Below are positions 46,106 through 62,348 of a DNA stretch of 64,000 nucleotides, in pieces. The notes beneath the pieces are model-generated. The model worked only from the letters and a program-made list of their open reading frames with translations, searched no databases and was not told where the DNA came from. Numbering within the stretch: the stretch's first letter is position 1; each line of letters opens with the position of its first letter. The position numbers and the translations under genes are program-made. Origin of the DNA: Prevotella fusca JCM 17724 (GTDB lineage Bacteria; Bacteroidota; Bacteroidia; Bacteroidales; Bacteroidaceae); NCBI RefSeq assembly GCF_001262015.1, contig NZ_CP012074.1, positions 1,012,501 through 1,076,500 on the forward strand, written 5' to 3'.

Positions 46106-46171
46106 GATATAACGACGAGGTATCTATCTTCCTTTTTTATACGCTACACCCTTATCTAATGAGAGTAAAGA

Positions 46172-46425
46172 AGGCTTACTTTCATTTTGCCGAGTGCAGC
46201 TTACTTTCTGCAAAAGTAATGCAAACGAGAGCAAAAGAAAACTTGTTTTCACTTTGCCGAGTGCAGCTTACTTTCTGCAAAAGTAATGCAAACGAGAGCA
46301 AAAGAAAACTTGTTTTCACTTTGCCGAGTGCAGCTTACTTTCTGCAAAAGTAATGCAAACGAGAGCAAAAGAAAACTTGTTTTCATTTTGCCGAGTGCAG
46401 CTTACTTTCTGCAAAATTACATAAA
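46172..46425 (-). repeat. 67-bp tandem repeat, promoter-like, upstream of lptF/G
   Basis: GCCGAGTGCAGCTTACTTTC recurs at 46189, 46256, 46323 and 46390, a period of exactly 67 bases, with almost no changes. On the minus strand each full unit contains TTTTC, 19-20 bases and TACTTTTGCAG, the arrangement of a Bacteroidetes promoter pointing at the lptF/G gene that starts 67 bases away. Confidence 0.85.
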
Positions 46426-46635
46426 AATATCAGAGTAATTGTCTTTTTTAGCATTTTTATTCTTTACCCCTTTCTTTCCCATCGCATAGGGCACTGCACT
46501 CCATCACTCAATTCCTACTTCATGCTGCAGATTTATAAGGAGTTATGGATCTAAACAAATAAAAGGAAAACAAGCTGTTACAACTATTTTCACAACAACA
46601 GGCAGCATAAGAAACTATCTATCGCAATCATTCCA

Positions 46636-46765
46636 GCAACATATTGCAAAACATTTAGTACTCAGCACCATTGGTGCTTACCTGCAACACCACATGTGAC
46701 GGGCAACAGCACATCGGTAGGAAAAGGGAAGTAAGGTTCATTATTGCCATTATAACACACAGCAA
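46636..46765. repeat. CACCATTGGTG repeat family, copy at 46640
   Basis: ACATATTGCAAA, AGCACCATTGGTGCTTACC, ACACCACATGTGACGGGC, ACAGCACATCGGTAGG and TTATAACACACAGCAAAC occur in order over about 130 bases, the fullest copy in the window. Confidence 0.85.
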
Positions 46766-46866
46766 ACACTTATGACTAAGTTATACGGAAAATGTTTGTC
46801 GGACGGTATTATTTCCTAATCACACTATAAGACAAGCCCCCTTTTACCGCCCCAACGTTCCAATCC

Positions 46867-47259
46867 TTAAACGCCCGTTATGCAATGCAAGCGTTCAATA
46901 TTCTGATTCCATATCTGCACCAGCCCTTCATGGTCATCATCTTCAGCAAAGTCAGTGATTGCCAAGTGATAGTTGCCGGCAATCTCACTATGGAACATTC
47001 TTATTTCCCAATATGAATCAACGTCTGAAGAGTCCCAACGCAATCGTATGTGACTATTCTTCTCCATCTCAACAACCGTTGCCGTATGTGTATCATGTTC
47101 ACGAAGCGGATCACCCCAGATGAAGGTCGCCGTGCTCCCATCCATCATGACGTCATCAGCCAACCATTTCTTCAACCCGACAGGCGTACTGATCAGTGTC
47201 CACACGGCACTACCCGACCGTGTTTTCAACTCATATTCCAGTTCTATCTTCCGGCTCAT
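46867..47259 (-). CDS. START-like domain protein
   Basis: The 130-residue protein starts MSRKIELEYELKTRSGSAVW. It has the helix-grip pattern of small SRPBCC/START-like proteins in Bacteroidetes (STPVGLKKWLADDVMMDGSTATFIWGD, IRLRWDSSDVDSYWEIRMFHSEIAG). The role is unknown; the fold suggests binding of a hydrophobic ligand. The mobile element begins about 120 bases upstream of its start, so its native promoter may have been separated from it. Confidence 0.75.
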   Translation of the reverse strand: MSRKIELEYELKTRSGSAVWTLISTPVGLKKWLADDVMMDGSTATFIWGDPLREHDTHTATVVEMEKNSHIRLRWDSSDVDSYWEIRMFHSEIAGNYHLAITDFAEDDDHEGLVQIWNQNIERLHCITGV

Positions 47260-47265
47260 ATTCAA

Positions 47266-47689
47266 ATTCTACCTTTTCTTTAATACTATTATTAACTCTC
47301 TTTTGCCTTGCCATCAACCTGCCTCGCCTTGTCATTGACACCCTATAGTCTTGCAAGCAAACATTAATTACGATGCAAGTAGCCGTTAGTTACGATGTAA
47401 CTAATCAATGAAAAAAAAGAAATATCGAAATTGATGTAAACTAACTGATAATGAGGAGGAAATGCTCTGATTTGCATGATGCTGCATTGTTTGTAAAAGG
47501 CAGGAAAGTGCAGATTTAGGCAGAAGTTCAGTTACCAGAGTGTTACCTTGTTTTGATGTAGGTAACGATGGTGCAGTATTCGGTAACTGAATTATTTCCA
47601 CTCGTGTGGCTGTTGCTTTGGTCGGCAGTTTTCTGCGTAAGTGAGGAACGCTTTAATTCGGGTAACTTTACCCACAAATATTAAAGCGT
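47266..47689. other. Leader region of the mobile element
   Basis: No gene. It contains the candidate att core and several GGTAAC/GTTACC-type half-sites (CAGTTACCAGAGTGTTACC, GTAGGTAACG, TCGGTAACTGAA) between 47538 and 47595 that could be arm sites for the recombinases. Confidence 0.4.
47376..47395. other. Candidate left attachment site
   Basis: CAAGTAGCCGTTAGTTACGA matches the right-end sequence at 60254-60273 in 17 of 20 positions, including 12 consecutive (TAGCCGTTAGTT, 47380-47391). It lies about 300 bases before the first recombinase gene. Confidence 0.55.
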
Positions 47690-48919
47690 ATGAAAACAGA
47701 GAAAATGAAGGTGTTGCTCTACCTTAAAAAGAGCGGTCTGGACAAGTCGGGCAAGGCTCCGATTATGGGACGTATTACCATTGGGCGTTCCATTGCCCAA
47801 TTTAGTTGTAAACTATCTTGTAATCCCGATTTGTGGAATCCCCGTGAGAGCAGGATGAACGGTAAGAGTCGTGAGGCAGTGGAGATTAACGGAAAGTTGG
47901 AGAATTTGTTACTTTCCATTCAATCGGCTTACCAATCATTGATTACCAAAGGTTGCCCATTTGATGCAACCGATGTAAAGGAGCAGTTTCAAGGCAGCGG
48001 GCAGGCAAGATGTATGCTCATCGAGAGATTGGATATGCTCATCAAGGAGAAAGAAAGTCATATCGGTATAGACATCAAGAAAGAGTCTATGTCCACCTAT
48101 TATTCCACTCGAAAACGATTACAGGAGTTTATTCTGAAGAAGTATAATGTTTCAGACATGGCGTTCTCCCAATTGACCGAGAACTTCATATATGAGTTCC
48201 GCCAATACTACTTGGGGGTATGTGGCTTCCAAGAAAGTTCTTTCTTCGCAGTGGCATCACATTTGAAAACGGTTTGCAGGTTGGCTTACCGTGAGGGAAT
48301 AGCCGATACACTGATGTTTGACAAAGCCCACATAGAAAGAGGAGATAAGAAAACGCCGAAGGCACTCAACAGGGAAGCCTTGGAGAAGTTAAAGGTTCTC
48401 CGCTTTGATGATTTGGAGGAGGAAATGGAAACGGCAAGGGATATTTTTCTCTTTGCCTGTTATACCGGTGCTGCGTATTGCGATTTGATGAAACTAAGCA
48501 AATCTTATCTTGTCCGTGATGACGAGGGAAATTTATGGCTGAAGTTCTATCGTCAGAAGACAGGGGTACTATGCCGCATCAAATTGCTGCCCGAAGCCAT
48601 CAGGTTGATAAAAAAGTTTCACAGCGATGAAAGGGAAACATTGCTCCCCTATGTCAAGTACAAGAACTATCAGACCTGCCTGAAAGCCCTACGGCTACGT
48701 GCAGGTATCCCGTTTCTCTTTACCACGCATACAGCAAGGCACACCTTTGCCACCCTTATTACTTTAGAACAGGGCGTACCGATTGAAACGGTGAGTAAGA
48801 TGCTCGGGCATACCAATGTAAGCATGACCGAACGTTATGCAAAGGTAACACCACAGAAACTCTTTGAGGAGTTTAACTGTTTCCTTTCTTTCACAGAAGA
48901 TTTACGTTTAACCATTTAA
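47690..48919 (+). CDS. Tyrosine recombinase, first of a tandem pair
   Basis: The 409-residue integrase has an Arm-DNA-binding N-terminus (KVLLYLKKSGLDKSGKAPIMGRITIG), a SAM-like core-binding domain and a C-terminal catalytic domain. That domain shows HTARHTFATL (H-x-x-R), LGHTNVSMTERYAKV (His and Tyr nucleophile near residue 390). The usual first catalytic arginine (TGLR) is replaced: the segment reads ACYTGAAYCDLMKLS. Such loss of the first arginine is known for Bacteroides integrases such as IntDOT. It probably integrates and excises the element together with the gene 12 bases downstream. Confidence 0.93.
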   Translation: MKTEKMKVLLYLKKSGLDKSGKAPIMGRITIGRSIAQFSCKLSCNPDLWNPRESRMNGKSREAVEINGKLENLLLSIQSAYQSLITKGCPFDATDVKEQFQGSGQARCMLIERLDMLIKEKESHIGIDIKKESMSTYYSTRKRLQEFILKKYNVSDMAFSQLTENFIYEFRQYYLGVCGFQESSFFAVASHLKTVCRLAYREGIADTLMFDKAHIERGDKKTPKALNREALEKLKVLRFDDLEEEMETARDIFLFACYTGAAYCDLMKLSKSYLVRDDEGNLWLKFYRQKTGVLCRIKLLPEAIRLIKKFHSDERETLLPYVKYKNYQTCLKALRLRAGIPFLFTTHTARHTFATLITLEQGVPIETVSKMLGHTNVSMTERYAKVTPQKLFEEFNCFLSFTEDLRLTI

Positions 48920-48931
48920 CCAAGATTTTTT

Positions 48932-50176
48932 ATGAGAAGTACATTCAAGATATTGTTTTACATCAACAGACAGAAAATAAAGGCAGACGGCAAGACCGCC
49001 ATTCTCTGCCGTATCACCATAGACGGAAAGAGTACCGCCATTACCACAGGCGAGCAGTGCAAATCCTCCGAGTGGAACAGCAGGAAAGGACTGACAACCG
49101 ACAAGAAGACCAATCAAAGAATTGGCGAGTTTAAGGAACTTGTAGAAAAGACCTATCAGGATATTCTGATAAATGACGGGGTGGTAAGTGTGGAAGTGCT
49201 CAAGAACCGTTTGCAGGGAGTAGCCGCTACGCCGACAACACTTCTTGCCATGAGCAAAGCCGCACTGCAATCCGTTAAAGAGTGCGTGGGCAAATCGAGA
49301 GCTGAGGGAACCTATCAGAATCTTCTCTATTCAGATAAGTTACTTACGGAGTTTGTAAAGGATAAGGGAATGACGGATATAGTCATAGCCACTATACAGG
49401 AAGACTTGTTTGAAGAATACCGTTTCTATCTGAAAAAACGAGGCTTGGCAACAGCAACCATGAATCGCTATCTTTGTTGGTTGAGTAGGCTGATGTACCA
49501 TGCGGTCAGTCAAAGAATCATCCGTTGCAATCCCTTTGAGAATGCCAAGTATGAGAAAGGGGAACAGAAGATACGCTTTTTGCAAAAGAGCGAAGTATCT
49601 AAACTTATGGCATTGAGAGTACTTGATAAGGAAGCAGAACAAGCAAGACGGCTGTTTGTCTTTGCCTGTTTTACAGGTTTGGCTATTGCTGATATGGAAC
49701 ATTTGCAATTTGGACATATCCAAATGTCAGCAGACGGACAGAAATATATTAGAAAGGAACGGCAGAAAACAAAGATGGAGTTTATTGTGCCCCTGCACCC
49801 GATAGCAGAGACCATCATCAATCAATGCAAGAAAGAACGACCGAGCATGAAAGAAATACAGACGGTGAAAGGAAAAGGCGACGACTTTATCTTTCACTGT
49901 GCTTGCAGCCGTAGCGTGATGAGTGCAAAGCTGAGCATCGTGGGCAAGGCTTGCGGTATCAGAGAACGGTTGTCCTACCACATGGCAAGGCACACGTTCG
50001 GCACGATGAGTTTAAGTGCAGGAATACCTATCGAAAGCATTGCCAAGATGATGGGGCACGCCTCTATATCAAGCACACAGATATATGCGCAGGTGACGGA
50101 CAATAAGATTTCGGAGGATATGGACAGACTGATAAGGAAACATCAAAAGGAGGAAACAATGGGGGAAACCGTATGA
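48932..50176 (+). CDS. Tyrosine recombinase, second of a tandem pair
   Basis: The 414-residue recombinase has the Bacteroidetes Arm domain (KILFYINRQKIKADGKTAILCRITID) and a catalytic domain with ACFTGLAIADMEHLQ (first Arg again absent), HMARHTFGTM and MGHASISSTQIYAQV (Tyr near residue 396). It is clearly related to, but diverged from, the first recombinase. Its end overlaps the next gene by 4 bases. Confidence 0.93.
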   Translation: MRSTFKILFYINRQKIKADGKTAILCRITIDGKSTAITTGEQCKSSEWNSRKGLTTDKKTNQRIGEFKELVEKTYQDILINDGVVSVEVLKNRLQGVAATPTTLLAMSKAALQSVKECVGKSRAEGTYQNLLYSDKLLTEFVKDKGMTDIVIATIQEDLFEEYRFYLKKRGLATATMNRYLCWLSRLMYHAVSQRIIRCNPFENAKYEKGEQKIRFLQKSEVSKLMALRVLDKEAEQARRLFVFACFTGLAIADMEHLQFGHIQMSADGQKYIRKERQKTKMEFIVPLHPIAETIINQCKKERPSMKEIQTVKGKGDDFIFHCACSRSVMSAKLSIVGKACGIRERLSYHMARHTFGTMSLSAGIPIESIAKMMGHASISSTQIYAQVTDNKISEDMDRLIRKHQKEETMGETV

Positions 50177-50577
50177 AAGTCAATTACCATCAAACAAAAG
50201 GAGACCGCAGTTATTTCGAGTGGGGCGACAATATGCAAATCATTCGCAAAGGCAAAGGCGAAATCGCCATGACAGAGAGCGAATTGGTAGAATTCTTCTG
50301 TGTAACATGGAGGAAACTCAATTATCGTCTGCAGCAACTACTAAAAGTATCTTCCCTACGTCCCGATGAAAGGGATACAGGAGAGTTGGAAGTATTCGTG
50401 AACGGACGGCTACAAGGTTATGCTCCGCTTTATCCGCTTTCAATCATCATCGCTTTGTCTTATCAATTGGACAGCATGGAAGCATACTTCTTCAGGAAAT
50501 ACATCTGCCAAGAGTTACAACGTCCTGCATCTGTGATGGAGCAGATATTCCTATATGGAAGTGGCTGTATCAATTGA
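50173..50577 (+). CDS. Small protein translationally coupled to recombinase
   Basis: The 134-residue protein overlaps the second recombinase stop by 4 bases (ATGA), implying coupled translation. It lacks a signal peptide. The middle (ESELVEFFCVTWRKLNYRLQQLL) and the end (GYAPLYPLSIIIALSYQLDSMEAYFFRKYICQEL) look helical. The latter loosely resembles the N-terminal part of RhuM-like proteins, where 'II(A/S)xxYRxxSxxAxxFRxW' recurs. That likeness is weak. A role as recombination accessory factor is inferred from position. Confidence 0.65.
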   Translation: MKVNYHQTKGDRSYFEWGDNMQIIRKGKGEIAMTESELVEFFCVTWRKLNYRLQQLLKVSSLRPDERDTGELEVFVNGRLQGYAPLYPLSIIIALSYQLDSMEAYFFRKYICQELQRPASVMEQIFLYGSGCIN

Positions 50578-50795
50578 TATGCTTTTCTCTTTCACCGATA
50601 TTATCTTACTACATAACTACAAGGAAAGGTAATACGGTGAAAGGAAAGGGTTGGTATTGTAGTCAGAAAGTAGGAATGGTTATTACTATCGTCTAACTAC
50701 ACACAACTATGTTTTTGAGGCCTTCAAGTATACCGAAAGCCTTATAAGTAGTTATTCTCCAAGTAGTCTATCAACAGTAGAGATACGCATCTGTT

Positions 50796-51698
50796 TTATT
50801 GCATAACATTCCTTTTACCCGTATTTCCTGACCCTCTGATTTCTTCGTGATAAAGATAATTCACTATCGAGGGATGTCCTTTGGGACTTCGTTCGTAAGG
50901 CAATTCATTATCCACATACTTACATTGAGCCTCCTGCGCCATTTCCGCGGCCTCTTGCTCTAATTGCTTCCAATATGTTCGGTCTTTATGCAAATAGATT
51001 TCTTCATAAAGTGGGAACAAATGGGGATAGTATGATTTGATATAACCCATAATGTTAGCCTTAAAACCACCCCGCAGATTGAGGTTCTCAAGCCAAAAGA
51101 GGTCGCAAATATCTTTCACTTCATGAAAAATAGCTTTGAAATTGGTGATGCCAGGGAAGATGGGCGACACAAAACAAATGGTTCGGATGCCCGCCTCGTA
51201 GACCTTTCGCATGGCTGCGATGCGCCGCTCTATGCTCACGGCCTTGTCCATGTCGGCACGAAATGTCTCATCAAGCGTGTTGACTGACCACGATACGGTG
51301 ACTTTCTTCATTTGCCGGAGCAGGTCAAGGTCGCGCAACACGAGGTCGCTCTTTGTACAAATGAGTATTTCTGCATCGCTGTCTTTGAGCTCTTCAAGCA
51401 GTTTACGTGTCCTGCGGAACGTTGCTTCTTCGGGATTATACCCATCGGTCACTGATCCAATAACCACGCGTTGTCCGGCATATTTCTTCGGATTCTTGAT
51501 TGCAGGCCAATGCTTCACGTCTAAGAAAGTGCCCCATTCTTCTTTATGTCCTGTGAAGCGCTTCATGAATGAGGCGTAACAATACTTGCAAGCATGGGTG
51601 CACCCCACGTATGGATTCACCGAATAGCCACCAACAGGGAGGTTGGACTTGGTCATGATACCACGCACCTCTTTCGTTCCAATGAGTGTTTTTGCCAT
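50796..51698 (-). CDS. SplB-like radical SAM protein
   Basis: The 300-residue protein begins MAKTLIGTKEVRGIMTKSN. The 4Fe-4S motif is CTHACKYCY (C-x3-C-x2-C, near residue 33), then a radical-SAM barrel follows (VVIGSVTDGYNPEEATFRRTRKLLEEL, VTVSWSVNTLDETFRADMDKAVSIERR, GIRTICFVSPIFPGITN). It belongs to the 'DNA repair photolyase-like' subgroup, related to but shorter than spore photoproduct lyase; the true substrate of most members is unknown. It is the last gene of the cargo operon. Confidence 0.82.
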   Translation of the reverse strand: MAKTLIGTKEVRGIMTKSNLPVGGYSVNPYVGCTHACKYCYASFMKRFTGHKEEWGTFLDVKHWPAIKNPKKYAGQRVVIGSVTDGYNPEEATFRRTRKLLEELKDSDAEILICTKSDLVLRDLDLLRQMKKVTVSWSVNTLDETFRADMDKAVSIERRIAAMRKVYEAGIRTICFVSPIFPGITNFKAIFHEVKDICDLFWLENLNLRGGFKANIMGYIKSYYPHLFPLYEEIYLHKDRTYWKQLEQEAAEMAQEAQCKYVDNELPYERSPKGHPSIVNYLYHEEIRGSGNTGKRNVMQ

Positions 51699-51715
51699 AT
51701 ATCTTCCTTTATTCT

Positions 51716-52480
51716 TTATAAATCCTCTACCGTTTCACCGTCTTCAGGAATAAAGACGCGGTCTAAAATTCCTGCCACTTCCGCACGCTTTCTCACCATT
51801 TCACGCGTCACGCTATTGTGGTTCACGCCTTCAAGATGCGTCACAAATAACTTTGCATCAGGTGCAGCTGCAGCAACTTTTACCACATCTTCATCGTTCA
51901 TAATAACGCGTCCACCCAAGCGAAAGCCATTGCCACCAGCATTAAGGGTGATAACCTCGGGGCGAAAACGCTTCAAATTGCGCTTCACACCAGCATACCA
52001 GATGGTATCTCCGGCGTGATAGAGCGTCTTTTCTTGTGGATGAGTGAATACATAACCCGCTGTATGTCCGGCAGGATACTTCATGATGAAATTACCATGC
52101 TGGCTTTCGGCCTTTTGTATGCTCACTTCCCCAATCCTTGTATTGTCGCCGACAACTTCCACATGATTAAATCCATGCGACATCACCACCTGCCGATTGT
52201 TTTCGTCTTGCACAAAAAATCGCATATCTTTAGGCATCATTTCATAGGCCGCCTCATCGATATGGTCATCGTGTAGATGGGTAAGCAACACCGCATCTAC
52301 ACCTTTTAGCATCTCTTCTACAGGAAAAGGTAGTTCATGAAGTGGGTTGCGCAGATGTTGATTTCTACTAAAGGGGAAAGGAGGCATGCAGCCTTTCTTT
52401 CCCAACATGGGGTCGATCAGAATTTTCTTTCCCCCATATTCAACGATTATCGTTGCGTTTCTTACTTGTTGGATATTCAT
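51716..52480 (-). CDS. Metallo-beta-lactamase-fold hydrolase, UlaG-like
   Basis: The 254-residue protein has MNIQQVRNATIIVEYGGKKILIDPML and the metal motif LLTHLHDDHID (near residue 62). Further ligands lie in GHTAGYVFTHP and YHAGDTIWY. This is the UlaG/ComA-like branch of the MBL fold, which includes lactonases and phosphodiesterases. The substrate cannot be told. It is 17 bases upstream of the radical SAM gene and 12 bases after the cupin gene. Confidence 0.85.
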   Translation of the reverse strand: MNIQQVRNATIIVEYGGKKILIDPMLGKKGCMPPFPFSRNQHLRNPLHELPFPVEEMLKGVDAVLLTHLHDDHIDEAAYEMMPKDMRFFVQDENNRQVVMSHGFNHVEVVGDNTRIGEVSIQKAESQHGNFIMKYPAGHTAGYVFTHPQEKTLYHAGDTIWYAGVKRNLKRFRPEVITLNAGGNGFRLGGRVIMNDEDVVKVAAAAPDAKLFVTHLEGVNHNSVTREMVRKRAEVAGILDRVFIPEDGETVEDL

Positions 52481-52492
52481 TGTTTATTAAAA

Positions 52493-52945
52493 TTAAAGTT
52501 TAACATTGGCTTCCAGCATAATACCATCCTTCAGTGGTTCATCATCATCAGAGAACGAATTTGCCTTATATTGTACGCAAAGCACGAGCATTTCGCTGCT
52601 GCCTGTGTTCTTGAAAGCACGTTTGCCATTGGGCGCAATTCTCACGATGCTTCCTTCTGAAACGGGAAATCGTTTGCCGTCTACATCGAAAATGCCTTCA
52701 CCTTTAAGAATGAAATAAAGCTCTTCGTGGGTTTTATGGGTATGGCGTGTGCCATAATCCTGCCCAGCTGCAAGACTTTGGAAAGACAATTCTGCGCCTG
52801 TTGCTTGTAGTGCATGTCCGGCAAACATCTTTCCCGGGATAGAGAAATTGCCCATAGCCAACTCATATTCCTTAATTTCATTCAACTTACCTACGTTCAC
52901 CGTGGTGAAGTTCTCACCTTTTTCTACAATTTTAATTTCTTTCAT
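52493..52945 (-). CDS. Cupin-domain protein
   Basis: The 150-residue protein starts MKEIKIVEKGENFTTVNVG; the longer frame from 53029 runs into the araC promoter and is rejected. The cupin motif 1 is GxxYGTRHTHKTHEELYFILKGEG and motif 2 is PVSEGSIVRIAPNGKRAFKNTG, with His and Glu as likely metal ligands. It could be an isomerase, dioxygenase or small-molecule sensor. It is the first gene of the cargo operon. Confidence 0.83.
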   Translation of the reverse strand: MKEIKIVEKGENFTTVNVGKLNEIKEYELAMGNFSIPGKMFAGHALQATGAELSFQSLAAGQDYGTRHTHKTHEELYFILKGEGIFDVDGKRFPVSEGSIVRIAPNGKRAFKNTGSSEMLVLCVQYKANSFSDDDEPLKDGIMLEANVKL

Positions 52946-52971
52946 AATGCTATTTGTTTTGATTACGAGTG

Positions 52972-52979
52972 CAAAGGTA
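52972..52979 (-). promoter_or_regulatory. -7 box of cargo operon
   Basis: Minus-strand TACCTTTG, 26 bases before the cupin start. The -33 element is not clear; activation by the divergent AraC-type regulator would fit a weak -33. Confidence 0.55.
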
Positions 52980-53029
52980 GTGCATAAAACAAAGACACAT
53001 TCTACCATTAATAATATATGCTCTACCAT

Positions 53030-53060
53030 TTTGATAAGCCATTAATTATTCGTACATTTG
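53030..53060 (+). promoter_or_regulatory. Promoter of araC-type gene, leaderless
   Basis: TTTG (53030-53033), exactly 19 bases, TACATTTG (53053-53060), then 4 bases to ATG at 53065. A perfect consensus match placed so that the message should begin at or next to the start codon. Confidence 0.8.
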
Positions 53061-53064
53061 TTGC

Positions 53065-53970
53065 ATGAAATTAGAGAGTCATCCCCAAGAACTTACACAA
53101 GTTCCTTTCTGCAAAACGGAATGTGGTGTAGACTTCAACATCAATACCGATACGCACGAGCGTTTGCGGGGCGTATTGATGGAGTATCCGTCTTTCAAAA
53201 CCAACTTCTTCGAGTTGTTTTTCTTCAGGAAAGCATCCGGGTGGCTGCGTTATGGCTTTCAACATATCGCGTTGAAAGACAATACGGTGCTGATACTTTC
53301 GCCGCACATCCATCAGGAGTGGCACATTGATGAAAGCCAAACGGATTATCGTTTCCTTATTTTCCGTGATGATTTTCTTTCAACTTATCTTGCCGATCCT
53401 TTCTTTACTTATCGTTTGCTTTATTGCTACCAAACAGATTTCCCACCCTATCTGTCGGCTACAGCTATGGAACAACAAGAATACGAGCGTTTGCTTGTGC
53501 GGATAAAAGAAGAACTCAACCATCCTCTTGCCGACAGCTATCACATCATCGTATCCTTGCTTCATTATCTGCTCATGACCCTTAATCGTAGGTATTCTGC
53601 TCAATACCATCTGCCTTTTGATGCCCCCAAGAACCACCATGCCTTTGAGTTCAAACAACTCTTAGAGAAGCATATTCGCCAATACCAGCAAGTGGCCGAC
53701 TATGCAGCCATGCTGAACATCAGCCGCATCACATTGAATGCTTCTGTACAGGCACAATATGGGCAAACGGCCGTACATCTGCTGAAACAACGTCTGCTTG
53801 CAGAAATCAAGAATGAAATACTATTCACTGATAAAACTACCAGTGAATTGGCATACGAATTCAATTTCTCGGAGCCGGGACATTTAATGCGTTTCTTCAA
53901 AAAACAAACAGGACAGACGGTTACGGAGTTTAAAGAAGAATATAAAGGACAACAGTTTACCGCAGAATAG
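53065..53970 (+). CDS. AraC-family transcription regulator of the cargo
   Basis: The 301-residue regulator has an N-terminal cupin-like ligand domain (TVLILSPHIHQEWHIDESQTDYRFLIF). Two C-terminal helix-turn-helix units follow (VADYAAMLNISRITLNASVQAQYG and TTSELAYEFNFSEPGHLMRFFKKQTGQTVTEFKEEY). It is divergent from the cupin operon with 119 bases between starts, so it most likely controls that operon and itself. Confidence 0.88.
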   Translation: MKLESHPQELTQVPFCKTECGVDFNINTDTHERLRGVLMEYPSFKTNFFELFFFRKASGWLRYGFQHIALKDNTVLILSPHIHQEWHIDESQTDYRFLIFRDDFLSTYLADPFFTYRLLYCYQTDFPPYLSATAMEQQEYERLLVRIKEELNHPLADSYHIIVSLLHYLLMTLNRRYSAQYHLPFDAPKNHHAFEFKQLLEKHIRQYQQVADYAAMLNISRITLNASVQAQYGQTAVHLLKQRLLAEIKNEILFTDKTTSELAYEFNFSEPGHLMRFFKKQTGQTVTEFKEEYKGQQFTAE

Positions 53971-54074
53971 AAAAATGATTAAACGAAGAACTTACCAATA
54001 AACGAACGGCACTTGAAACAGATATATCTCTGCTCAAGTGCCGTTGTCCATTCACCAATATACGCTTATTGCCT

Positions 54075-54380
54075 TTATCCTGTCTGACTACCCTGATAAT
54101 TCTCCTCCAGCATCTTCTCCAAGTCCGAAGCCTTGTAGAGTATCTTTCCTGCAAACTGCGTGTAGGGAATGATTCTCCTATCGCGGTAGTCCTGCAAGGT
54201 ACGAGGACTGATATACAGCCGCTCGCACACTTCCTTTCCTGTGAGGAAAAGTTCGCCTGCAAAGAGTGGTTTGTGCGTCTGCGCCACTTCCACAATCCGT
54301 TTTCCTACACCTCTCAACGCTGAGACAACCAGCTGCATCTCGTCCGTCTCCATGTTCAAGTCTCTTGCTGTTTCCATCAT
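54075..54380 (-). CDS. Helix-turn-helix (excisionase-like) protein 2
   Basis: The 101-residue protein carries a MerR/excisionase-type HTH (LTGKEVCERLYISPRTLQDYRDRRIIPYTQFAGKILYKASDLEKMLEE). Its start overlaps the stop of the upstream HTH gene by 4 bases, so the two are translated together. Such tandem HTH genes act as recombination directionality factors or regulators in Bacteroides elements. Confidence 0.82.
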   Translation of the reverse strand: MMETARDLNMETDEMQLVVSALRGVGKRIVEVAQTHKPLFAGELFLTGKEVCERLYISPRTLQDYRDRRIIPYTQFAGKILYKASDLEKMLEENYQGSQTG

Positions 54381-54667
54381 ATCTGTCTGTTTTTAGGTTT
54401 GTCCGATTTCGTAAGAAGCAATGCTTCCACATCCTCGCGCTTGTAATAGCACTTGTGTCCGATTTGCGTAAACGGCAGCACACGCGTATCACGATAATGC
54501 TGCAAGGTGCGTTTGCTGATGTTCAGCAGTCGGCACACATCCCCGTTGTGCAGCCAGTCCGTGTGCTTACTCTTCTCTCCGAATGCCTTGTGGCAGCATT
54601 CTGCAAGGCTCAAGATTTCATCCCGAAGCTTTGCCCAATTAGTTTCTGTAATGATGTAATAGTTCAT
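54377..54667 (-). CDS. Helix-turn-helix (excisionase-like) protein 1
   Basis: The 96-residue protein has the HTH LHNGDVCRLLNISKRTLQHYRDTRVLPFTQIGHKCYYKREDVEALL. It is clearly a paralogue of the overlapping gene downstream. Its promoter may be provided by the repeat remnant at 54845-54930. Confidence 0.82.
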   Translation of the reverse strand: MNYYIITETNWAKLRDEILSLAECCHKAFGEKSKHTDWLHNGDVCRLLNISKRTLQHYRDTRVLPFTQIGHKCYYKREDVEALLLTKSDKPKNRQI

Positions 54668-55279
54668 AATTTTATATTGTTATTGTTTGTTGTTTCAGGT
54701 CTTTCCAGTTTCCATCGGCAAAGATAATGGCGTACGTACATCTCTCAAAGCCGTGGGGAACAGCAGGGAAGTATCGGGAACAATCGGGAAAAGAGCAATC
54801 CGTTTCATCGGTTCGCATTTGCGTTTTCCTGCCCCGTCTTTTTTCTTTTATTGCAAAGACAATCCAAGCGAGTGCAGAGGAAAGTTCACTTATCCTTTGC
54901 CGAGCGCAGCTTGTCTTATGCAAAATTAATATCGGGCATTTCTTATTCCATCACTTTTCATTCAAGTGGCAGCTTGTGGCACTATGACAAGGACAAAAGA
55001 GACAGATTGATACTTTTGCCACTATACAAATAAGGCTAATAAGACAATCAAAGCAAAAGAGTGCATCTGAGAGCAAACAACGACATCCGTATTTCTGCTA
55101 ACCTATCTTTCCTGTCATCCATTTTTTGCTTAATGAGGCTATAAATACCCTTCTTGACAGCCTGTTCTCCTAAGAATTTTGCAGCGGACGAGCGCAACAT
55201 TATGCAAGAAGGCTCTGAATGCTTGGAAGTTACGCATTCTCACCCTAACTTCACTCTTGGAAACCAATTCAAGGGAATA
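54668..55279. other. Divergent region between HTH pair and vapE
   Basis: It contains the decayed 67-bp-type repeat (54845-54930) whose minus-strand promoter form faces the HTH pair. Frames from several short ATGs are not supported. The vapE start is placed at 55280; a run-in frame from 55154 is open but unconserved. Confidence 0.5.
54845..54930 (-). repeat. Diverged copy of the 67-bp promoter-like repeat
   Basis: TTTGCCGAGCGCAGCTTGTC, ATGCAAAATTAAT and CGAGTGCAGAGGAAAG reproduce blocks of the 67-bp unit at 46172-46425 in the same orientation relative to a minus-strand gene. A TNNNCTTTGCA -7-like box lies on the minus strand near 54852. Confidence 0.6.
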
Positions 55280-56581
55280 ATGAAAAAGAACGCAGATGCA
55301 GGCAACATAGACAACAGAAGAAATCCTCATCGCAGGGGTAGCTCATCCAAGAACGCAGAGATAGAAAACTACCTCTCCACACACTACGAGTTCAGATACA
55401 ATACAGTATTGGGTAGAACCGAATACCGAAGTAGGAACAGCGGCATATTTACAAAAGTCGGTCGTTATGAAATCAATACGCTCCGCAGGGAACTTGATTG
55501 CGATGAAGGCATCGTAACTTCTTCCGATAATCTCTACTCTATCATCGAGAGCAGTTTTTCTCCGCGCATCAATCCTGTGCAGGAGTATTTAAAAGGGTTG
55601 CCATTGATAGATATAGGTGATAGCAGTAGCTGTGATGATGCTGGTTGTAGGGATAGTAATGTGCCTTCTTTTTCACCGAAAGCAATTTCCGATTTGGCAA
55701 GCTGCGTTGTTGTCCGTAATTCTAACAAATGGTTGCCGTATCTTACCAAATGGCTTGTGGCGGTCGTCGCCAACGCAATGGACGACCGTGAGTGCCGTAA
55801 CCACACCTGCCTTGTGCTGACGGGCGAGCAGGGCAAGTTCAAAACTACATTCTTGGATTTGCTCTGCCCACCTGCATTGCATGGCTATAGCTACACAGGC
55901 AAGATATATCCGCAGGAGAAGGACACGCTCACCTATATAGGACAGAACCTCATAGTGAACATCGACGACCAGCTCAAAGCCCTCAACAAACGGGATGAGA
56001 ACGAACTAAAGAACCTTATTACCTGCCCGATGGTCAAGTACCGCATGCCCTACGACAAGTATGTAGAAGAGCATCCCCACTTGGCAAGCTTTGTGGCATC
56101 AGTGAACGGCAATGACTTTCTTACAGACCCTACAGGAAGCAGACGCTTCCTGCCCTTTGAAGTGCTTTCCATAGATATTGAGAGAGCAAAAGCGATCTCG
56201 ATGAACAATGTTTATGCGGAAGCCAAAGCCCTGTTAAAGTCAGGTTTTCGCTATTGGTTTGATGATGATGAGATTGCCGAACTATACAGAGAGAGTGAGG
56301 ACTTTCAAGTACAGACTGCAGAGATGGAGCTTTTGTTGCGTTGTTTTGAAAAGCCAACGGAGAATGAAAGTTATTCGTTAATGACCACTACGGAGATACT
56401 CACTTATTTGGGTATTTATACTCACCAGCTACTTGTTGCCAAGCGTATGGGTGAAGCCTTGAAGAAAGCAGGATACATAAAGGTGAGCAAACGAAGAAAC
56501 GGTGGTAGCCCCATCTATGTCTACAAGATTAGGAAAATCTTGCCCTGCCCGCTCCTTCAAACTTGTAGTAGCCAAATGTAG
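55280..56581 (+). CDS. VapE/D5-like ATPase of mobile element
   Basis: The 433-residue protein from MKKNADAGNIDN contains the VapE-type P-loop LTGEQGKFKTTFLDLL (near residue 185). It is followed by NLIVNIDDQLKALNKRDENELKNLI (Walker B region) and SVNGNDFLTDPTGSRRFLPFEV. Family members are superfamily-3-like helicases of phage and integrative elements. AAGGGAATA sits just upstream of ATG 55280, which supports this start over 55154 or 55202. It may help replicate the excised circle. Confidence 0.85.
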   Translation: MKKNADAGNIDNRRNPHRRGSSSKNAEIENYLSTHYEFRYNTVLGRTEYRSRNSGIFTKVGRYEINTLRRELDCDEGIVTSSDNLYSIIESSFSPRINPVQEYLKGLPLIDIGDSSSCDDAGCRDSNVPSFSPKAISDLASCVVVRNSNKWLPYLTKWLVAVVANAMDDRECRNHTCLVLTGEQGKFKTTFLDLLCPPALHGYSYTGKIYPQEKDTLTYIGQNLIVNIDDQLKALNKRDENELKNLITCPMVKYRMPYDKYVEEHPHLASFVASVNGNDFLTDPTGSRRFLPFEVLSIDIERAKAISMNNVYAEAKALLKSGFRYWFDDDEIAELYRESEDFQVQTAEMELLLRCFEKPTENESYSLMTTTEILTYLGIYTHQLLVAKRMGEALKKAGYIKVSKRRNGGSPIYVYKIRKILPCPLLQTCSSQM

Positions 56582-56763
56582 TAGAATGTGTAGTATTGTC
56601 TTATACTACAAAGTAATACTGATTATCAATCACTTATCACAAAATAGTATGTAGTAAGAAGAAAGATGAAAAAGTTTGGAGGGGGAAAACTTTGGAAAAG
56701 GTAAAACCATAAAAACAGACAAACATAAATAATTATCATTCAACCCATTAAAGTATCAAAGCA

Positions 56764-57720
56764 ATGAAAGAAGAAGATTTATCGGCAATCAAGCGATACC
56801 CCATCGTAGAGTATCTTGAAAGGAAAGGCATTAGGCCTGTCCGTAAAACATCTACCTATGTCATGTATCGCTCACCACTCAGGGAGGAAACTCATCCGAG
56901 TTTCAAGGTGGACACGGAAAAGAACCTTTGGATAGACTATGCCGAAGGCAGGGGCGGAAGCATTATTGACCTTTGTATGCACTTGGAAGGCTGCACGCTC
57001 TCGGAAGCCATCTGCCGTTTGGGACAGAACGCTTTAGAGCATACAGCGTACAGCTCCAATTCTCCAAAAAGAGAAATATCCATTAGTCCAAATCAAAGAG
57101 AGGATGTAACGGCAAGCGGAACAAGGAGACTGATATGCCTATCAGACACCTTGCCACCGCATTTGCAGGAGTATCTCAAAAAGGAACGCTGCATTGATTT
57201 GGAAAAGGCAACACCCTTTCTTAAATGTATCAGTTACGAGGTAAGGGGAAGAAGATATGAAGCCATCGGCTTTGCCAATTCTTCGGGTGGTTATGAACTT
57301 CGGGACAACAATACGTTCAAGGGAACGATTGCTCCGAAAGACATCACTCCGATATTTGAGGACATGGAACAGCCTGTCTGTTTGTTCGAGGGATTTATGG
57401 ACTTTCTCTCTTTTCTTTCAATGAAAGAGGAAGTAACCAACCAATGCCTTGTGATGAATTCCGTAAGTAATGTAGCAAGAAGTATTCACTACCTGAACAA
57501 AAGAGATATAACCTCAGTTCGTACTTTTCTTGACAATGACGATGCAGGGCGAAAAGCTGTGCAGGAATTTGTAAACACAGGTTTTAAGGTAGAAGATATG
57601 GCTGTGTATTATGGAGACTTCAAAGATCTCAACGATTTTCACGTCAGACGTGTCCGTGGGCAGGAGAAATCTCAAAATACAAGCAACAAAATAAAACAAG
57701 TCAAACTTAAAATAAGATAG
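56764..57720 (+). CDS. TOPRIM-containing primase of mobile element
   Basis: The 318-residue protein has an N-terminal primase-like zinc-finger fold (YRSPLREETHPSFKVDTEKNLWIDYAEGRGGSIIDLC). The metal-binding cysteines of the usual CHC2 domain are absent. A TOPRIM domain follows, with VCLFEGFMDFLSF (Glu near residue 212) and TFLDNDDAGRKA (DxD). It would make primers for the excised element. It follows vapE by 182 bases. Confidence 0.85.
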   Translation: MKEEDLSAIKRYPIVEYLERKGIRPVRKTSTYVMYRSPLREETHPSFKVDTEKNLWIDYAEGRGGSIIDLCMHLEGCTLSEAICRLGQNALEHTAYSSNSPKREISISPNQREDVTASGTRRLICLSDTLPPHLQEYLKKERCIDLEKATPFLKCISYEVRGRRYEAIGFANSSGGYELRDNNTFKGTIAPKDITPIFEDMEQPVCLFEGFMDFLSFLSMKEEVTNQCLVMNSVSNVARSIHYLNKRDITSVRTFLDNDDAGRKAVQEFVNTGFKVEDMAVYYGDFKDLNDFHVRRVRGQEKSQNTSNKIKQVKLKIR

Positions 57721-57724
57721 AGTG

Positions 57725-58186
57725 ATGAAAAAGGAAAGAAGAAACATGGAAGAAATAGATCGTTTCATAGGAGAAACTTTTGGCGTAAGCCCGGCTAAAA
57801 GTTCAAACGAACAAACCGCCGCTAAATTTCGGGCGAGGGGAATGAAAAATATTCAAGAGCAAAAACAACAAGAAACAGGACATGCCATAGAGCATGCCAC
57901 GCCATCCGAGCCTGTACTGCATACAGAGCATGCAACTATTCAACGACGCATCAGTGCCAAGATGAGAAAAGAGACACTTGACGCATACAGGCAGGCGTTC
58001 CTTGTTCCAACAAAGCTAAGTGAGAGAAAGGCGGTCTATCTGAGCAGGGAAACACAGGAACGTGCGGACTTCATTGTCCGTAGATTGGGAGATAAAGGAG
58101 CCAATGTCTCGAGCTTCATCGAAAACCTTGTGCGTATCCATTTGGAGGAATACGGTGAGGATATAGAAAAATGGAGGAAGCTGTAA
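57725..58186 (+). CDS. DUF3408 family protein
   Basis: The 153-residue protein starts at ATG 57725, 4 bases after the primase stop; GTG at 57722 is an in-frame alternative. The C-terminal half (RKAVYLSRETQERADFIVRRLGDKGANVSSFIENLVRIHLEEYGEDI) matches DUF3408, found in Bacteroidetes mobilization and conjugation loci. A ribbon-helix-helix-like DNA-binding role is plausible. Confidence 0.8.
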   Translation: MKKERRNMEEIDRFIGETFGVSPAKSSNEQTAAKFRARGMKNIQEQKQQETGHAIEHATPSEPVLHTEHATIQRRISAKMRKETLDAYRQAFLVPTKLSERKAVYLSRETQERADFIVRRLGDKGANVSSFIENLVRIHLEEYGEDIEKWRKL

Positions 58187-58194
58187 ACAACAGA

Positions 58195-58256
58195 AAAACG
58201 GTCAAGGACTATCGAGTAAAAGGATGTCCCTTTCACTCAAAATCCTCGACCGTTTT
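58195..58256 (+). terminator. Terminator of primase-DUF3408 operon
   Basis: AAAACGGTC-AGGA pairs with TCCTCGACCGTTTT, starting 9 bases after the DUF3408 stop codon, around a 35-base loop. Confidence 0.65.
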
Positions 58257-58384
58257 AGGGTAGTACCAACAACAGATTTTTACTGAACACATTGAACGGT
58301 GGGAATGCCACGAACACAGTTAATCTTCTGAATGCATAGCATTCATTTTTGGACGGCAAAACGCTTTATGCGTAAACGGAACGT

Positions 58385-58460
58385 TAGCTGACATTGCAAG
58401 ACGTCAGTTTGTACCCACAAACTGCGCTTGCTCCCCTCGTTCGGTTATCGGGGAGATTAG
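58385..58460 (+). other. Candidate origin of transfer (oriT)
   Basis: GCAAG-N5-AGTTTGT-ACCC-ACAAACT-N3-CTTGC (58396-58431) forms a compound hairpin. It is followed by a second one, CTCCCC/GGGGAG (58431-58455). This 270-base gap before mobC and the relaxase gene is where oriT usually lies in mobilizable elements. Confidence 0.55.
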
Positions 58461-58528
58461 ACCGTAATCACTCCGTTCTCATCGGTCAGCCATCAGAAAT
58501 TAAGCAATAACGAAAAGAGGACTTTTAT

Positions 58529-58960
58529 ATGAACAGATACAATAGCAAGACTGCCCGATGGCAGCAGCAGGAGAAGAAAGAACAGCTGATGAAAAAGACT
58601 GAGTTCATCAAGGTAAGGTGTACCTTAGAGGAAAAGCAACGCATCAAGTCAAAGGCGGAAAGTACAGGAAGAAAGTTCTCAGACTACTGTCGTGAGATAC
58701 TTCTTAATGGAGAAGTGAGAGCTGTCCCTAAGATGACCGACAATGAAAGGGAAGCCATCGAACTACTCAGACGAACGGCCTACTTCTTCTCACATATTTC
58801 CAATCTTATCAAGGTAAAGGATGATGCATGGGTACTGATTACTCAAAGTCTTTCCTATCTGGCAAGGGAGGCATTTAAGCGTTTCTTCAATCCCAAATAC
58901 CACATTGAGGAAAGGGCAATTAAACTCTTAAATTTGATGGAGAATGATAGGAAAGTGTAA
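58529..58960 (+). CDS. MobC-like relaxosome protein
   Basis: The 143-residue basic protein has a ribbon-helix-helix-like N-terminus (KTEFIKVRCTLEEKQRIKSKAESTGRKFSDYCREILLNG) typical of MobC/MobA accessory proteins that bind oriT. It overlaps the relaxase gene by 17 bases, so both are probably translated together. Confidence 0.85.
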   Translation: MNRYNSKTARWQQQEKKEQLMKKTEFIKVRCTLEEKQRIKSKAESTGRKFSDYCREILLNGEVRAVPKMTDNEREAIELLRRTAYFFSHISNLIKVKDDAWVLITQSLSYLAREAFKRFFNPKYHIEERAIKLLNLMENDRKV

Positions 58961-60005
58961 GGCGATAGCGCACGGAAGCACGGCTTTAGACTATATTTTC
59001 AGAGAGGGCAAGCTCGGTAGTCGGCTTGCCTTTCACAATCTTTGCAGCAGGGAACCGAAGGCTATCTACGAGGAAATGAAAGTGGTCAGCGATTACAACA
59101 CACGATGCAGAAACAAGTTCCTCCGCATTGAAATCGGTATAGCACCTCAGGATGAGAAGAAACTACCCGTATCTGAACTCATGCGGATAGCCCATCTGTT
59201 TGCCAAACAAATGGGACTTGACAACCACCAATGGGTAGCAGTAACGCACAAGGACACCGATAACAGGCATATCCATATCATTGCCAACCGCATCAGCCTG
59301 TATGGGGAGGTCTATGACACCACTTTTGTAAGCAACAGGGCAGCAAGAGTGGCGGAGGAAATAAGTCGCTCGAAAGGCTTGACCATTGCAAAGGAGGTCA
59401 GGGCGGAAAGGAAGCATCAGAAAGCAAAAGCCAATCCTAAGAGAGAGCAAACAAAGAAAGAAGTACAGCAAATCTGTTATGCCTTGTTGGATAAATATAA
59501 AGGCGGTGGCATATCAGGGCACTCCATGTTTCTCTACGAATTGAACAAGAACAACATTATCATAGAGCGCATGAAGAACAAACAGGGAAAAGTCTATGGT
59601 TTGAAGTTCTCCTACTGTGGCCAGACATTCAAAGCTTCCGAAATCGGCAGAGAGTTCGGCTACCGTTCCCTGCAGAAAAACTTTGAACCAACCAACAGGA
59701 AAGAACCAAAGAAACCACACCAAGCAATGCAGGAGGCAACTGAAAAGAAAGAACAGCCTGATACAGGTTATCAGCTTGTACCCAAAAGCCGTTTCACTGT
59801 CTTACGAGACAATGATACTCCACGAGCGCAGAACTCCATTGGTGCAGTGGCAGACACCATTGTTAGTGCAGCCGATGAAGTTGTGGAAGGGTTAGGCGAT
59901 TTGATTACACCATCCACACAGGGCAATGACTATGCTGAAACAGCGTGGCAGCGCAAGCTCAGGAACCAAGCCAACAGAAAGAAAAAACGTGGAAGAGGAT
60001 TATAA
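58944..60005 (+). CDS. Relaxase / mobilization nuclease
   Basis: The 353-residue relaxase starts MIGKCKAIAHGSTALDYIFREGKLG and has the metal-binding motif HKDTDNRHIHIIANR (HxDxxxxHxHxxxN, near residue 105). The likely catalytic Tyr is near the N-terminus (TALDYIF). The C-terminal third is charged (KKEQPDTGYQ, RKLRNQANRKKKRGRGL). It nicks oriT to start mobilization. Confidence 0.9.
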   Translation: MIGKCKAIAHGSTALDYIFREGKLGSRLAFHNLCSREPKAIYEEMKVVSDYNTRCRNKFLRIEIGIAPQDEKKLPVSELMRIAHLFAKQMGLDNHQWVAVTHKDTDNRHIHIIANRISLYGEVYDTTFVSNRAARVAEEISRSKGLTIAKEVRAERKHQKAKANPKREQTKKEVQQICYALLDKYKGGGISGHSMFLYELNKNNIIIERMKNKQGKVYGLKFSYCGQTFKASEIGREFGYRSLQKNFEPTNRKEPKKPHQAMQEATEKKEQPDTGYQLVPKSRFTVLRDNDTPRAQNSIGAVADTIVSAADEVVEGLGDLITPSTQGNDYAETAWQRKLRNQANRKKKRGRGL

Positions 60006-60046
60006 CTCACGCCTAAGAAAAAATGCAGAAAGAAGGATATCTCATC

Positions 60047-60107
60047 AAGAACGCTTGTTATTCGGTAACAAAGTATTATCTTTGCAAACAGAATAACAAG
60101 CGTTCTT
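60047..60107. repeat. Perfect 17-bp inverted repeat around promoter-like core
   Basis: AAGAACGCTTGTTATTC and GAATAACAAGCGTTCTT are exact reverse complements, 27 bases apart. The 27 bases contain TATCTTTG (60077-60084). CTTG at 60054-60057 lies 19 bases upstream, inside the left arm, so a Bacteroidetes-type promoter spans arm and core. Confidence 0.75.
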
Positions 60108-60253
60108 TGTTAGGCAGAAAACAGCGAAGCCAAGTAGCTCGCTCGTTTCTAAATCGTTACCAGCTTAGTTGCACAAATAACGCAACTTCTTTATTTTCAA
60201 TTAGATACATTTTAATAATTATCTTGCATTGTAAACAGGCATAAGCTACCATA

Positions 60254-60273
60254 CAAATAGCCGTTAGTTGCAA
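60254..60273. other. Candidate right attachment site
   Basis: CAAATAGCCGTTAGTTGCAA shares 17 of 20 positions with the sequence at 47376-47395, including TAGCCGTTAGTT (60258-60269). Confidence 0.55.
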
Positions 60274-60590
60274 TTCTGCCAAGCCCGTTTAGCGTAGCCA
60301 TTCCCCATTGCATAATACCGACAGAAGGCATCAATTGTTTCAGAAAGGAGCAGCGTTCTGCATCAGCCTTCTTCCGCTTAGCTTAAACAGGATGATACAT
60401 CTAAAACGGGTATAGCCCCCGTTTTATTGTCTCCACCGTTTTGTTTTGCACAAACAGGAAGTTCCCACCAAGGCTCAGAAAGCCATCTGCCATGCGGTTC
60501 TACAGCTTGTACAACAGCCTCTTCTCCCCCTTCTAACGGATGCAAATATAAAACTTTTTATTGAATATCCGTTAAAAAAGTGACTTAATA

Positions 60591-60622
60591 TTTGCGAGTA
60601 TGACTTTTTCTTCATACCTTTG
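60591..60622 (+). promoter_or_regulatory. Promoter of tRNA-Met
   Basis: TTTG (60591-60594), 20-base spacer and TACCTTTG (60615-60622): an exact consensus, 33 bases before the mature tRNA. Confidence 0.85.
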
Positions 60623-60654
60623 CACCCGCTTTCAAGAACGAAAGTCAGACGGAT

Positions 60655-60728
60655 GGCGGGATAGCTCAGTTGGTTAGAGCGTCGGATTCATAATCCGGAG
60701 GTCCGGGGATCGTAGCCCCGTCCCGCTA
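60655..60728 (+). tRNA. tRNA-Met (CAT anticodon)
   Basis: The cloverleaf folds fully: acceptor GGCGGGA/TCCCGCT, D arm GCTCAGTTGGTTAGAGC, anticodon arm TCGGA-TTCATAA-TCCGG with CAT, and T arm CGGGG-ATCGTAG-CCCCG. CCA is not encoded. The loop fits elongator Met best; an Ile2 (lysidine-modified CAT) tRNA cannot be excluded. The T loop is unusual (see findings). Confidence 0.9.
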
Positions 60729-60738
60729 CATTTAAATT

Positions 60739-60780
60739 AAAAGGAGTTGTGGTTTTACCGCAACTCCTTTTTTTCTTTTT
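60739..60780 (+). terminator. Terminator after tRNA-Met
   Basis: AAAGGAGTTG(C) stem around TGGTTTTACC, then CTCCTTTTTTTC. Confidence 0.85.
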
Positions 60781-60862
60781 CCAAAAACAACACGTGGCTC
60801 TGCCACTATCACCCCCCTTCCCCGTGAGCATACGACCTGACTAAAGCCACCTGTCAGCCAAA

Positions 60863-60890
60863 CAAAAAGGCGAGTCTCTCGACTCGCCTC
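60863..60890 (-). terminator. Terminator of ferredoxin gene
   Basis: AGGCGAGTC and GACTCGCCT form the stem; on the minus strand it is followed by TTTTTG. About 30 bases past the stop codon. Confidence 0.85.
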
Positions 60891-60919
60891 GTGAATTTAA
60901 TCAGTAACAGGTTTGAACC

Positions 60920-61087
60920 TTATGGGAGGCTGATAGCCTCGTTAGGACAAACTGATGCACAAGTACCACACTCTGTGCATGCATCTGCATCAATCTTATA
61001 GATGTCGCCCTCAGAGATTGCCTCTACTGGACACTCATCGATACATGTACCGCAAGCGATACAGTCATTGCTAATTACGTAAGCCAT
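60920..61087 (-). CDS. 2[4Fe-4S] ferredoxin
   Basis: The 55-residue protein was read directly from the minus strand: MAYVISNDCIACGTCIDECP, then CTECGTCASVCP near the end. Two C-x2-C-x2-C-x3-CP motifs bind two 4Fe-4S clusters, the clostridial-type ferredoxin layout. It is a low-potential electron carrier for anaerobic metabolism such as pyruvate:ferredoxin oxidoreductase. It stands alone between a promoter at 61159 and a terminator. Confidence 0.95.
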   Translation of the reverse strand: MAYVISNDCIACGTCIDECPVEAISEGDIYKIDADACTECGTCASVCPNEAISLP

Positions 61088-62189: not shown

Positions 62190-62249
62190 CCCTTAAAACA
62201 ACAACCACAGACTAAGGAAAGACCAAGGAAAGTATTTACAGAAACAACT

Positions 62250-62296
62250 AAAATCCATGTGAATTTGAAGTTGAACTCCAAGCTCACATGGATTTT
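62250..62296 (+). terminator. Terminator after porT
   Basis: AAAATCCATGTGA pairs with TCACATGGATTTT around a 20-base loop, about 60 bases after the stop codon. Confidence 0.75.
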
Positions 62297-62348
62297 AAGA
62301 TAAAATTAGTATCTTTGCAGCATTACAAAACCAAAAACTACACAACGC

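What the first reader, a model, noticed from the sequence alone, without database searches (positions are those of the whole stretch)
50796..53970. Cargo cassette: radical SAM, MBL-fold hydrolase and cupin under a divergent AraC regulator
Sequence: three genes 12-17 bases apart on one strand, and a ligand-sensing AraC gene on the other with a perfect promoter. None encodes a known resistance or restriction function. Established: the radical SAM belongs to the SplB-like 'photolyase-like' group of mostly unknown substrate; cupins and UlaG-like hydrolases act on small metabolites. Inference: an inducible small-molecule modification or detoxification pathway carried as accessory DNA, and the best candidate here for an undescribed system.
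Basis: partly seen in the sequence, partly recalled or inferred. Interest (0 to 1): 0.7.

Follow-up and report, generated by a model that had tools for sequence, protein, structure and literature searches.

The report
Portable stress-response cassette with radical-SAM enzyme
A four-gene, switchable cassette in the cargo slot of a Prevotella-type mobile element is a new variant of a widespread but unstudied radical-SAM gene system, and its recurring neighbours suggest it protects bacteria against reactive, thiol-attacking chemicals.

Summary
Cupin, metallo-hydrolase (MBL) and radical SAM genes lie 12 and 17 bp apart, facing a divergent AraC gene, in the cargo slot of a 12.8-kb mobilizable element. 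The radical SAM gene is NCBIfam TIGR04470, protein B of the named but apparently unpublished 'radical SAM mobile pair system'. Its usual partner A is missing here. Gut Bacteroidales plasmids of pMMCAT type carry AraC-MBL-A-B.

New here: (1) a conserved AraC operator, two half-sites 21 bp apart, 62-64 bp before the TTTGC of the promoter, in six divergent cassettes; (2) the MBL's closest solved relative is SaxA, an isothiocyanate hydrolase; (3) the cupin's chromosomal relatives mostly sit by HxlR-type regulators; (4) in other phyla B lies near SirTM/Zn-macrodomain ADP-ribosylation genes more often than chance, or after nitroreductases.

Best reading: an inducible defence against thiol-reactive electrophiles; the hydrolase destroys the chemical and B, with the spore-photoproduct-lyase fold, reverses or processes damage. 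Mobility is well supported and AraC control likely; the stressor and B's substrate are inferred.

The parts
50796..51698 (-). Radical SAM protein B (TIGR04470), 300 aa, CX3CX2C cluster motif at residues 33-40; SPL fold predicted
   Evidence: (547 bits, cut-off 410)
51716..52480 (-). SaxA-like metallo-beta-lactamase-fold hydrolase, 254 aa; HLHDDH (68), GDT (157), HLEGVNH (215) motifs
   Evidence: (PDB 6brm, 212.8 bits, residues 1-251)
52493..52945 (-). Cupin_2 protein, 150 aa from the likely start
   Evidence: (PDB 3cew, E 1.2e-16)
53065..53970 (+). AraC-family regulator, 301 aa; Cys20 and Cys121 conserved in 8 of 8 aligned sequences (window included), Cys16 in 1 of 8
53001..53037 (-). AraC operator: TTATCAAAATGGyAkA with a second TGGyAkA half-site 21 bp on
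   Evidence: (1 match in window at up to 3 mismatches, 0 in 100 shuffles)
52972..52979 (-). Cassette promoter -7 box TACCTTTG; no TTTG at the -33 position, near which the second half-site ends
53030..53060 (+). AraC promoter TTTG-N19-TACATTTG; its -33 box lies inside the operator
50622..54097 (.). Cargo slot of the element, filled by other genes in three related elements
47397..60228 (.). Mobilizable element carrying the cassette; ends set by alignment to other copies
47690..48919 (+). Tyrosine recombinase 1
48932..50176 (+). Tyrosine recombinase 2
54075..54667 (-). Two HTH_17 genes, excisionase-like
58944..60005 (+). MobA/VirD2-like relaxase

Best explanation
An AraC-switched, horizontally moving stress cassette against thiol-reactive electrophiles. 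Shown by sequence: one operator of two half-sites 21 bp apart sits at near-fixed distance before a promoter box, and the window's promoter lacks a -33 TTTG. Inferred from that: AraC activates cupin-MBL-B transcription and may repress its own gene, whose -33 box lies in the operator. Inferred further: AraC senses the chemical through conserved Cys20/Cys121; the SaxA-like hydrolase destroys the electrophile (isothiocyanate-like or a related host or diet thiocyanate product); the cupin handles a related small molecule; B, a [4Fe-4S]-SAM enzyme with the spore-photoproduct-lyase fold, uses a 5'-deoxyadenosyl radical to reverse or process an adduct on a nucleic acid, cofactor or protein. Partner A appears dispensable, so B is the likely core.
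Against: No inducer, substrate or phenotype is known. 961 proteins match the MBL at E<=1e-30; of the 120 listed, those with names are called MBL-fold or UlaG-type, none SaxA, and the pMMCAT MBL is only about 31% identical to the window's, so SaxA activity is not implied. MBL is absent (E<=1e-10) from all 19 non-Bacteroidota genomes searched, and no SirTM, macrodomain or ADP-ribosylglycohydrolase match lies in window 44500-63000 (L177), so partner links come from relatives. The SirTM link was found and counted in the same loci, with queries taken from five of them, and L037 and L076 share one layout, so about five cases are independent and the p-value is too small. The 17 include a 39% macrodomain match 2.6 kb off (L064). 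SPL's catalytic Cys could not be placed. In two of six cassettes the promoter box is GAACTTTG or GAATTTTG, not TAnnTTTG. The L022 operator scored 13.7 when left out of the matrix, below the best chance site in the window, 14.2. Off-target pattern hits at up to 3 mismatches exceed the reversed-pattern control, 81 to 35, and were mostly not examined.
Confidence: 0.5

Rival explanations
1. Resistance to one specific drug or antiseptic: the hydrolase and radical SAM modify that compound or its target.
For: Same cargo slot holds ABC and MMPL transporter genes in G012 (Pfam) and look-alikes with TetR in G016, and TetR plus TonB receptor in G003. Cassette DNA is 97.5-99.6% identical across four elements whose recombinase 1 is 79-82% and recombinase 2 about 91% identical, as recent strong selection would give. 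MarR-A-B lies before a chloramphenicol acetyltransferase gene on pSRC6.
Against: No resistance family among the Pfam and NCBIfam matches (no dedicated resistance library was searched). Several sensor families (AraC, MarR, Rrf2, HxlR) fit general stress better than one drug (inference).
Confidence: 0.17
2. Small-molecule tailoring or catabolic pathway: cupin, hydrolase and radical SAM act in sequence on one metabolite.
For: All three folds act on small molecules in known cases; AraC sensors often bind metabolites (general knowledge).
Against: No transporter or further enzyme between the slot borders; MBL, cupin and A are each missing from many loci that keep B, unlike steps of a pathway.
Confidence: 0.15
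3. Anti-phage or nucleic-acid defence: A (DUF5131) and B modify invading DNA/RNA or repair attack on it.
For: Three A-type proteins match PADLOC candidates PDC-M30B/M41B at 90-106 bits; SPL fold; B in 8 viral-contig loci; ADP-ribosylation neighbours.
Against: Window lacks A; B's own PADLOC match is 20 bits; hydrolase, cupin and redox-type regulators do not fit defence (inference).
Confidence: 0.1
4. Chance assembly of unrelated genes in a cargo slot.
For: The slot does take unrelated cargo.
Against: Same genes recur in different orders with one shared operator.
Confidence: 0.03

Closest known systems
NCBIfam 'radical SAM mobile pair system' (TIGR04470 B, TIGR04471 A, TIGR04472 MarR)
   Same: B is a full member; mobile context; short operon with its own regulator
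   Different: No A, AraC in place of MarR, plus cupin and MBL; known to me only as three HMMs, no paper found in the held library
AraC-MBL-A-B operon of pMMCAT-type plasmids (L148, L149, L151, L227)
   Same: AraC 58% identical, MBL, B 70%; operator of L148 with the same spacing
   Different: Keeps A, no cupin; MBL about 31% identical; promoter box GAACTTTG
SaxA isothiocyanate hydrolase (PDB 6brm)
   Same: Full-length similarity, metal-binding motifs
   Different: Activity untested here
Spore photoproduct lyase (PDB 4fhc and variants)
   Different: 18% identity; catalytic Cys not placed
RclR, AraC-family regulator of HOCl/HOSCN response in Pseudomonas aeruginosa (PMC7950407, passages)
   Same: AraC-family regulator next to the protective gene it induces
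   Different: Not aligned here; that RclR senses through Cys is recalled; inducer of the window's AraC unknown

Membership tests
Radical SAM mobile pair system (NCBIfam) | Protein B, TIGR04470 over cut-off | tested here: met
   547.2 bits, cut-off 410
Radical SAM mobile pair system (NCBIfam) | Protein A, TIGR04471, next to B | tested here: not met
   17-bp gap to MBL; best match in own genome 35.2 bits against 355, elsewhere
Radical SAM mobile pair system (NCBIfam) | MarR regulator TIGR04472 | tested here: not met
   Regulator is AraC; no TIGR04472 match
Radical SAM mobile pair system (NCBIfam) | Carried on mobile DNA | tested here: met
   Cargo slot of mobilizable element
SaxA isothiocyanate hydrolases | Full-length similarity and metal motifs | tested here: met
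   212.8 bits over residues 1-251; HxHxDH, GDT and HxExxNH aligned
SaxA isothiocyanate hydrolases | Hydrolyses isothiocyanates | not testable with these tools
   needs enzyme assay
Spore photoproduct lyase | Radical SAM motif and SPL fold | tested here: met
Spore photoproduct lyase | Catalytic Cys (Cys140 in the solved enzyme) | tested here: inconclusive
   Profile alignment did not reach it; no coordinates available
RclR-type AraC redox sensors | Redox-active Cys in the regulator | tested here: inconclusive
   Cys20 and Cys121 conserved in 8 of 8; RclR itself not aligned
SirTM/Zn-macrodomain operon | SirTM or Zn-macrodomain near B in this window | tested here: not met
   No match at E<=1e-4 in L177, window 44500-63000

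The most novel reading that the evidence does not exclude
B is the core of a previously unrecognised, portable electrophile-damage response, interchangeable in sensors (AraC, MarR, Rrf2, HxlR) and detox partners (SaxA-like hydrolase, cupin, nitroreductase), that works with SirTM/Zn-macrodomain ADP-ribosylation in other phyla; B reverses a chemical adduct by radical chemistry, a new substrate class for the SPL fold.
Probability: 0.25. Interest if true: 0.85.

Novelty: new variant of a known kind. Interest (0 to 1): 0.6.

Why it matters
A gene family found in 13 of 290 sampled Clostridia-class genomes (centre genome left out) and on pMMCAT-type plasmids has names but no known function. PMC12056005 (passages) calls pMMCAT globally present and says that only 6 of the 104 proteins of one copy could be assigned to a functional category. 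The operator, the SaxA-like hydrolase, the HxlR-linked cupin and the SirTM link turn 'unknown mobile radical SAM' into a short list of testable stressors. They would also add a radical enzyme to bacterial reversible ADP-ribosylation, for which GcvH-L is the only known SirTM target (PMC11490716, passage).

Full report
Observation. Gaps are 17 bp (radical SAM to MBL) and 12 bp (MBL to cupin). The cupin most likely starts at 52945, not 53029, because the -7 box TACCTTTG lies at 52979-52972 on the minus strand.

Where it sits. Window 47397-60228 is a mobilizable element with two tyrosine recombinases, two HTH_17 genes, VapE-like, Toprim and relaxase genes. Its left end was set by alignment to seven other copies with different flanks, its right end by two. 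Three related elements without the cassette (G003, G012, G016) keep the backbone at 82-98% identity but hold other cargo between window positions 50622 (50650 in G003) and 54097: TetR plus TonB receptor in G003; ABC and MMPL transporters in G012 by Pfam; in G016 genes of the same starts plus a Pfam-confirmed TetR. So this is a cargo slot. The cassette genes are 97.5-99.6% identical at DNA level in L018, L019, L020 and L112 (94-97% in L023), while recombinase 1 is 79-82%, recombinase 2 about 91% (no match in L019) and the VapE-like gene 86-93% where present. The cassette seems to have moved more recently than its carriers.

What the radical SAM is. It scores 547 bits on TIGR04470, 'radical SAM mobile pair protein B' (cut-off 410). 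NCBIfam also holds A (TIGR04471, a DUF5131 protein) and a MarR regulator (TIGR04472). In the window A is absent, and the own genome has only a 35-bit match elsewhere. Within 4 kb of B in those 80: A in 65, MarR in 49, Rrf2 in 14, cupin in 16, AraC in 6, MBL in 4, SirTM-like in 13, macrodomain in 5, ADP-ribosylglycohydrolase in 2 (three loci have under 900 bases upstream, and diverged A genes could be missed). These 80 are the closest, not a random sample. In 291 genomes of the class of L038's genome (G503, itself a carrier), 14 hold B at E<=1e-80, so 13 of 290 besides the centre; 12 of the 14 are over cut-off. In 395 Bacteroidota genomes only the window's own has B at E<=1e-60, against 7 of 100 close relatives over cut-off.

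Bacteroidota layouts. AraC divergent to MBL-A-B in G032 (L109) and to A-B in G080 (L110); AraC then B in L022; AraC, cupin, MBL, B in the window type. In G038 (L108) MBL-cupin faces a truncated AraC, and B lies about 4.6 kb away on the same contig. Among plasmids, 27 records match B at E<=1e-60, 24 of them Bacteroidales; all four I opened (L148, L149, L151, L227) show AraC, MBL, A, B in that order, one titled pMMCAT.

Operator. Aligning the divergent promoters of the window, L148, L109, L110, L001 and L022 shows TTATCAAAATGGyAkA (one or two differences in L001 and L022) and a second half-site near TGGyAkA exactly 21 bp later in all six. The promoter's TTTGC lies 62 bp from the operator start in five and 64 in L001; the box is TACCTTTG in four, GAACTTTG in L148 and GAATTTTG in L110. 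The window's match is unique at up to 3 mismatches, with none in 100 shuffles. In 19 genomes, exact matches occur once each in eight, all at the cassette promoter; two sites with one mismatch lie beside AraC genes in G038 and G104. In total 81 hits at up to 3 mismatches stand against 35 for the reversed pattern, and most were not examined. Leave-one-out scores range from 13.7 to 38.4, and the lowest (L022) is not above chance. The AraC -33 box overlaps the operator, which would allow autoregulation (inference).

Partners point to thiol-reactive stress. MBL: closest solved relative SaxA, 212.8 bits; SaxA-type enzymes turn isothiocyanates into amine and carbonyl sulfide (PMC7303113, passages). 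Among 100 relatives, own genome included, four carry this MBL at E<=1e-20 and all four carry B. Cupin: 27 of 100 relatives carry a homologue, and in 8 of 10 contexts opened an HxlR-looking gene is next to it, three verified by Pfam. L187 joins the two: cupin divergent from HxlR-A-B. In B. subtilis, thiol-stress regulons include OhrR, YodB, HypR and HxlR (PMC6943732, abstract). The Rrf2 regulator's best NCBIfam match is HypR at 63 bits, below its cut-off of 180; the MarR regulator, after its own family, is nearest OhrR at 57 bits, cut-off 200. L185 and L188 have a nitroreductase immediately before B.

ADP-ribosylation link. B is followed by a macrodomain match 12-33 bp later in L026, L050, L089 and L093, with a Sir2-like gene next in three of them; Sir2-like genes lie upstream of B in others. 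The Sir2-like protein of L079 best matches PDB 5a3a, listed as a SIR2 family protein (E 8e-40), which I recall as the S. pyogenes SirTM. The L093 macrodomain matches protein-ADP-ribose hydrolases. In 32 genomes (96.1 Mb from rounded sizes, 47 SirTM matches, 24 of 32 genomes positive), 6 of 33 B loci have one within 5 kb, expected 0.19, Poisson p 6e-8. The link was noticed in the same loci and some share ancestry, so this p is too small. No such gene lies near B in the window.

Conclusion. Shown: cassette, mobility, slot, conserved operator-like site, recurring partners. Inferred: AraC action on that site, the stressor class (thiol-reactive electrophiles) and B's role as damage-processing radical enzyme. 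Membership: B belongs to TIGR04470; the cassette is a variant and not a canonical member of the pair system, because A and the MarR regulator were tested and are absent.

Noticed in passing
L038:8751-10897 and many Firmicutes loci: MarR-A-B travels as a ~2.1-kb unit, 93-98% identical across different genera with different flanks and no transposase inside; a TTCCAGTTTG-like motif lies at both ends in 4 of 9 loci checked. How it moves is unknown.
   Followed up: partly
L059:9896-10888: B's reading frame begins with the start of A, as if A had been lost by an in-frame deletion; A also not found in L051, L061, L069, L091.
   Followed up: partly
L082:13515-18121: A nitroreductase, macrodomain, SirTM-like gene and a DUF5131 radical SAM lie in one run, about 5 kb from MarR-A-B.
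   Followed up: partly
L022:8359-9904 and L021:1343-1823: Weaker copies of the operator (2-3 mismatches) lie upstream of a Fur-like gene; in L022 that gene is divergent from an AraC relative and followed by a TonB-receptor-looking gene.
   Followed up: partly
window 47340-47397 and 60228-60300: The element sits in DNA that looks like short tandem repeats by eye; flanks of other copies look repetitive too, with different sequence.
   Followed up: no
L150 (Selenomonas plasmid pSRC6): The next gene after MarR-A-B is a chloramphenicol acetyltransferase.
   Followed up: no
L176:4603-7094: Both recombinase genes of this related element are interrupted.
   Followed up: no
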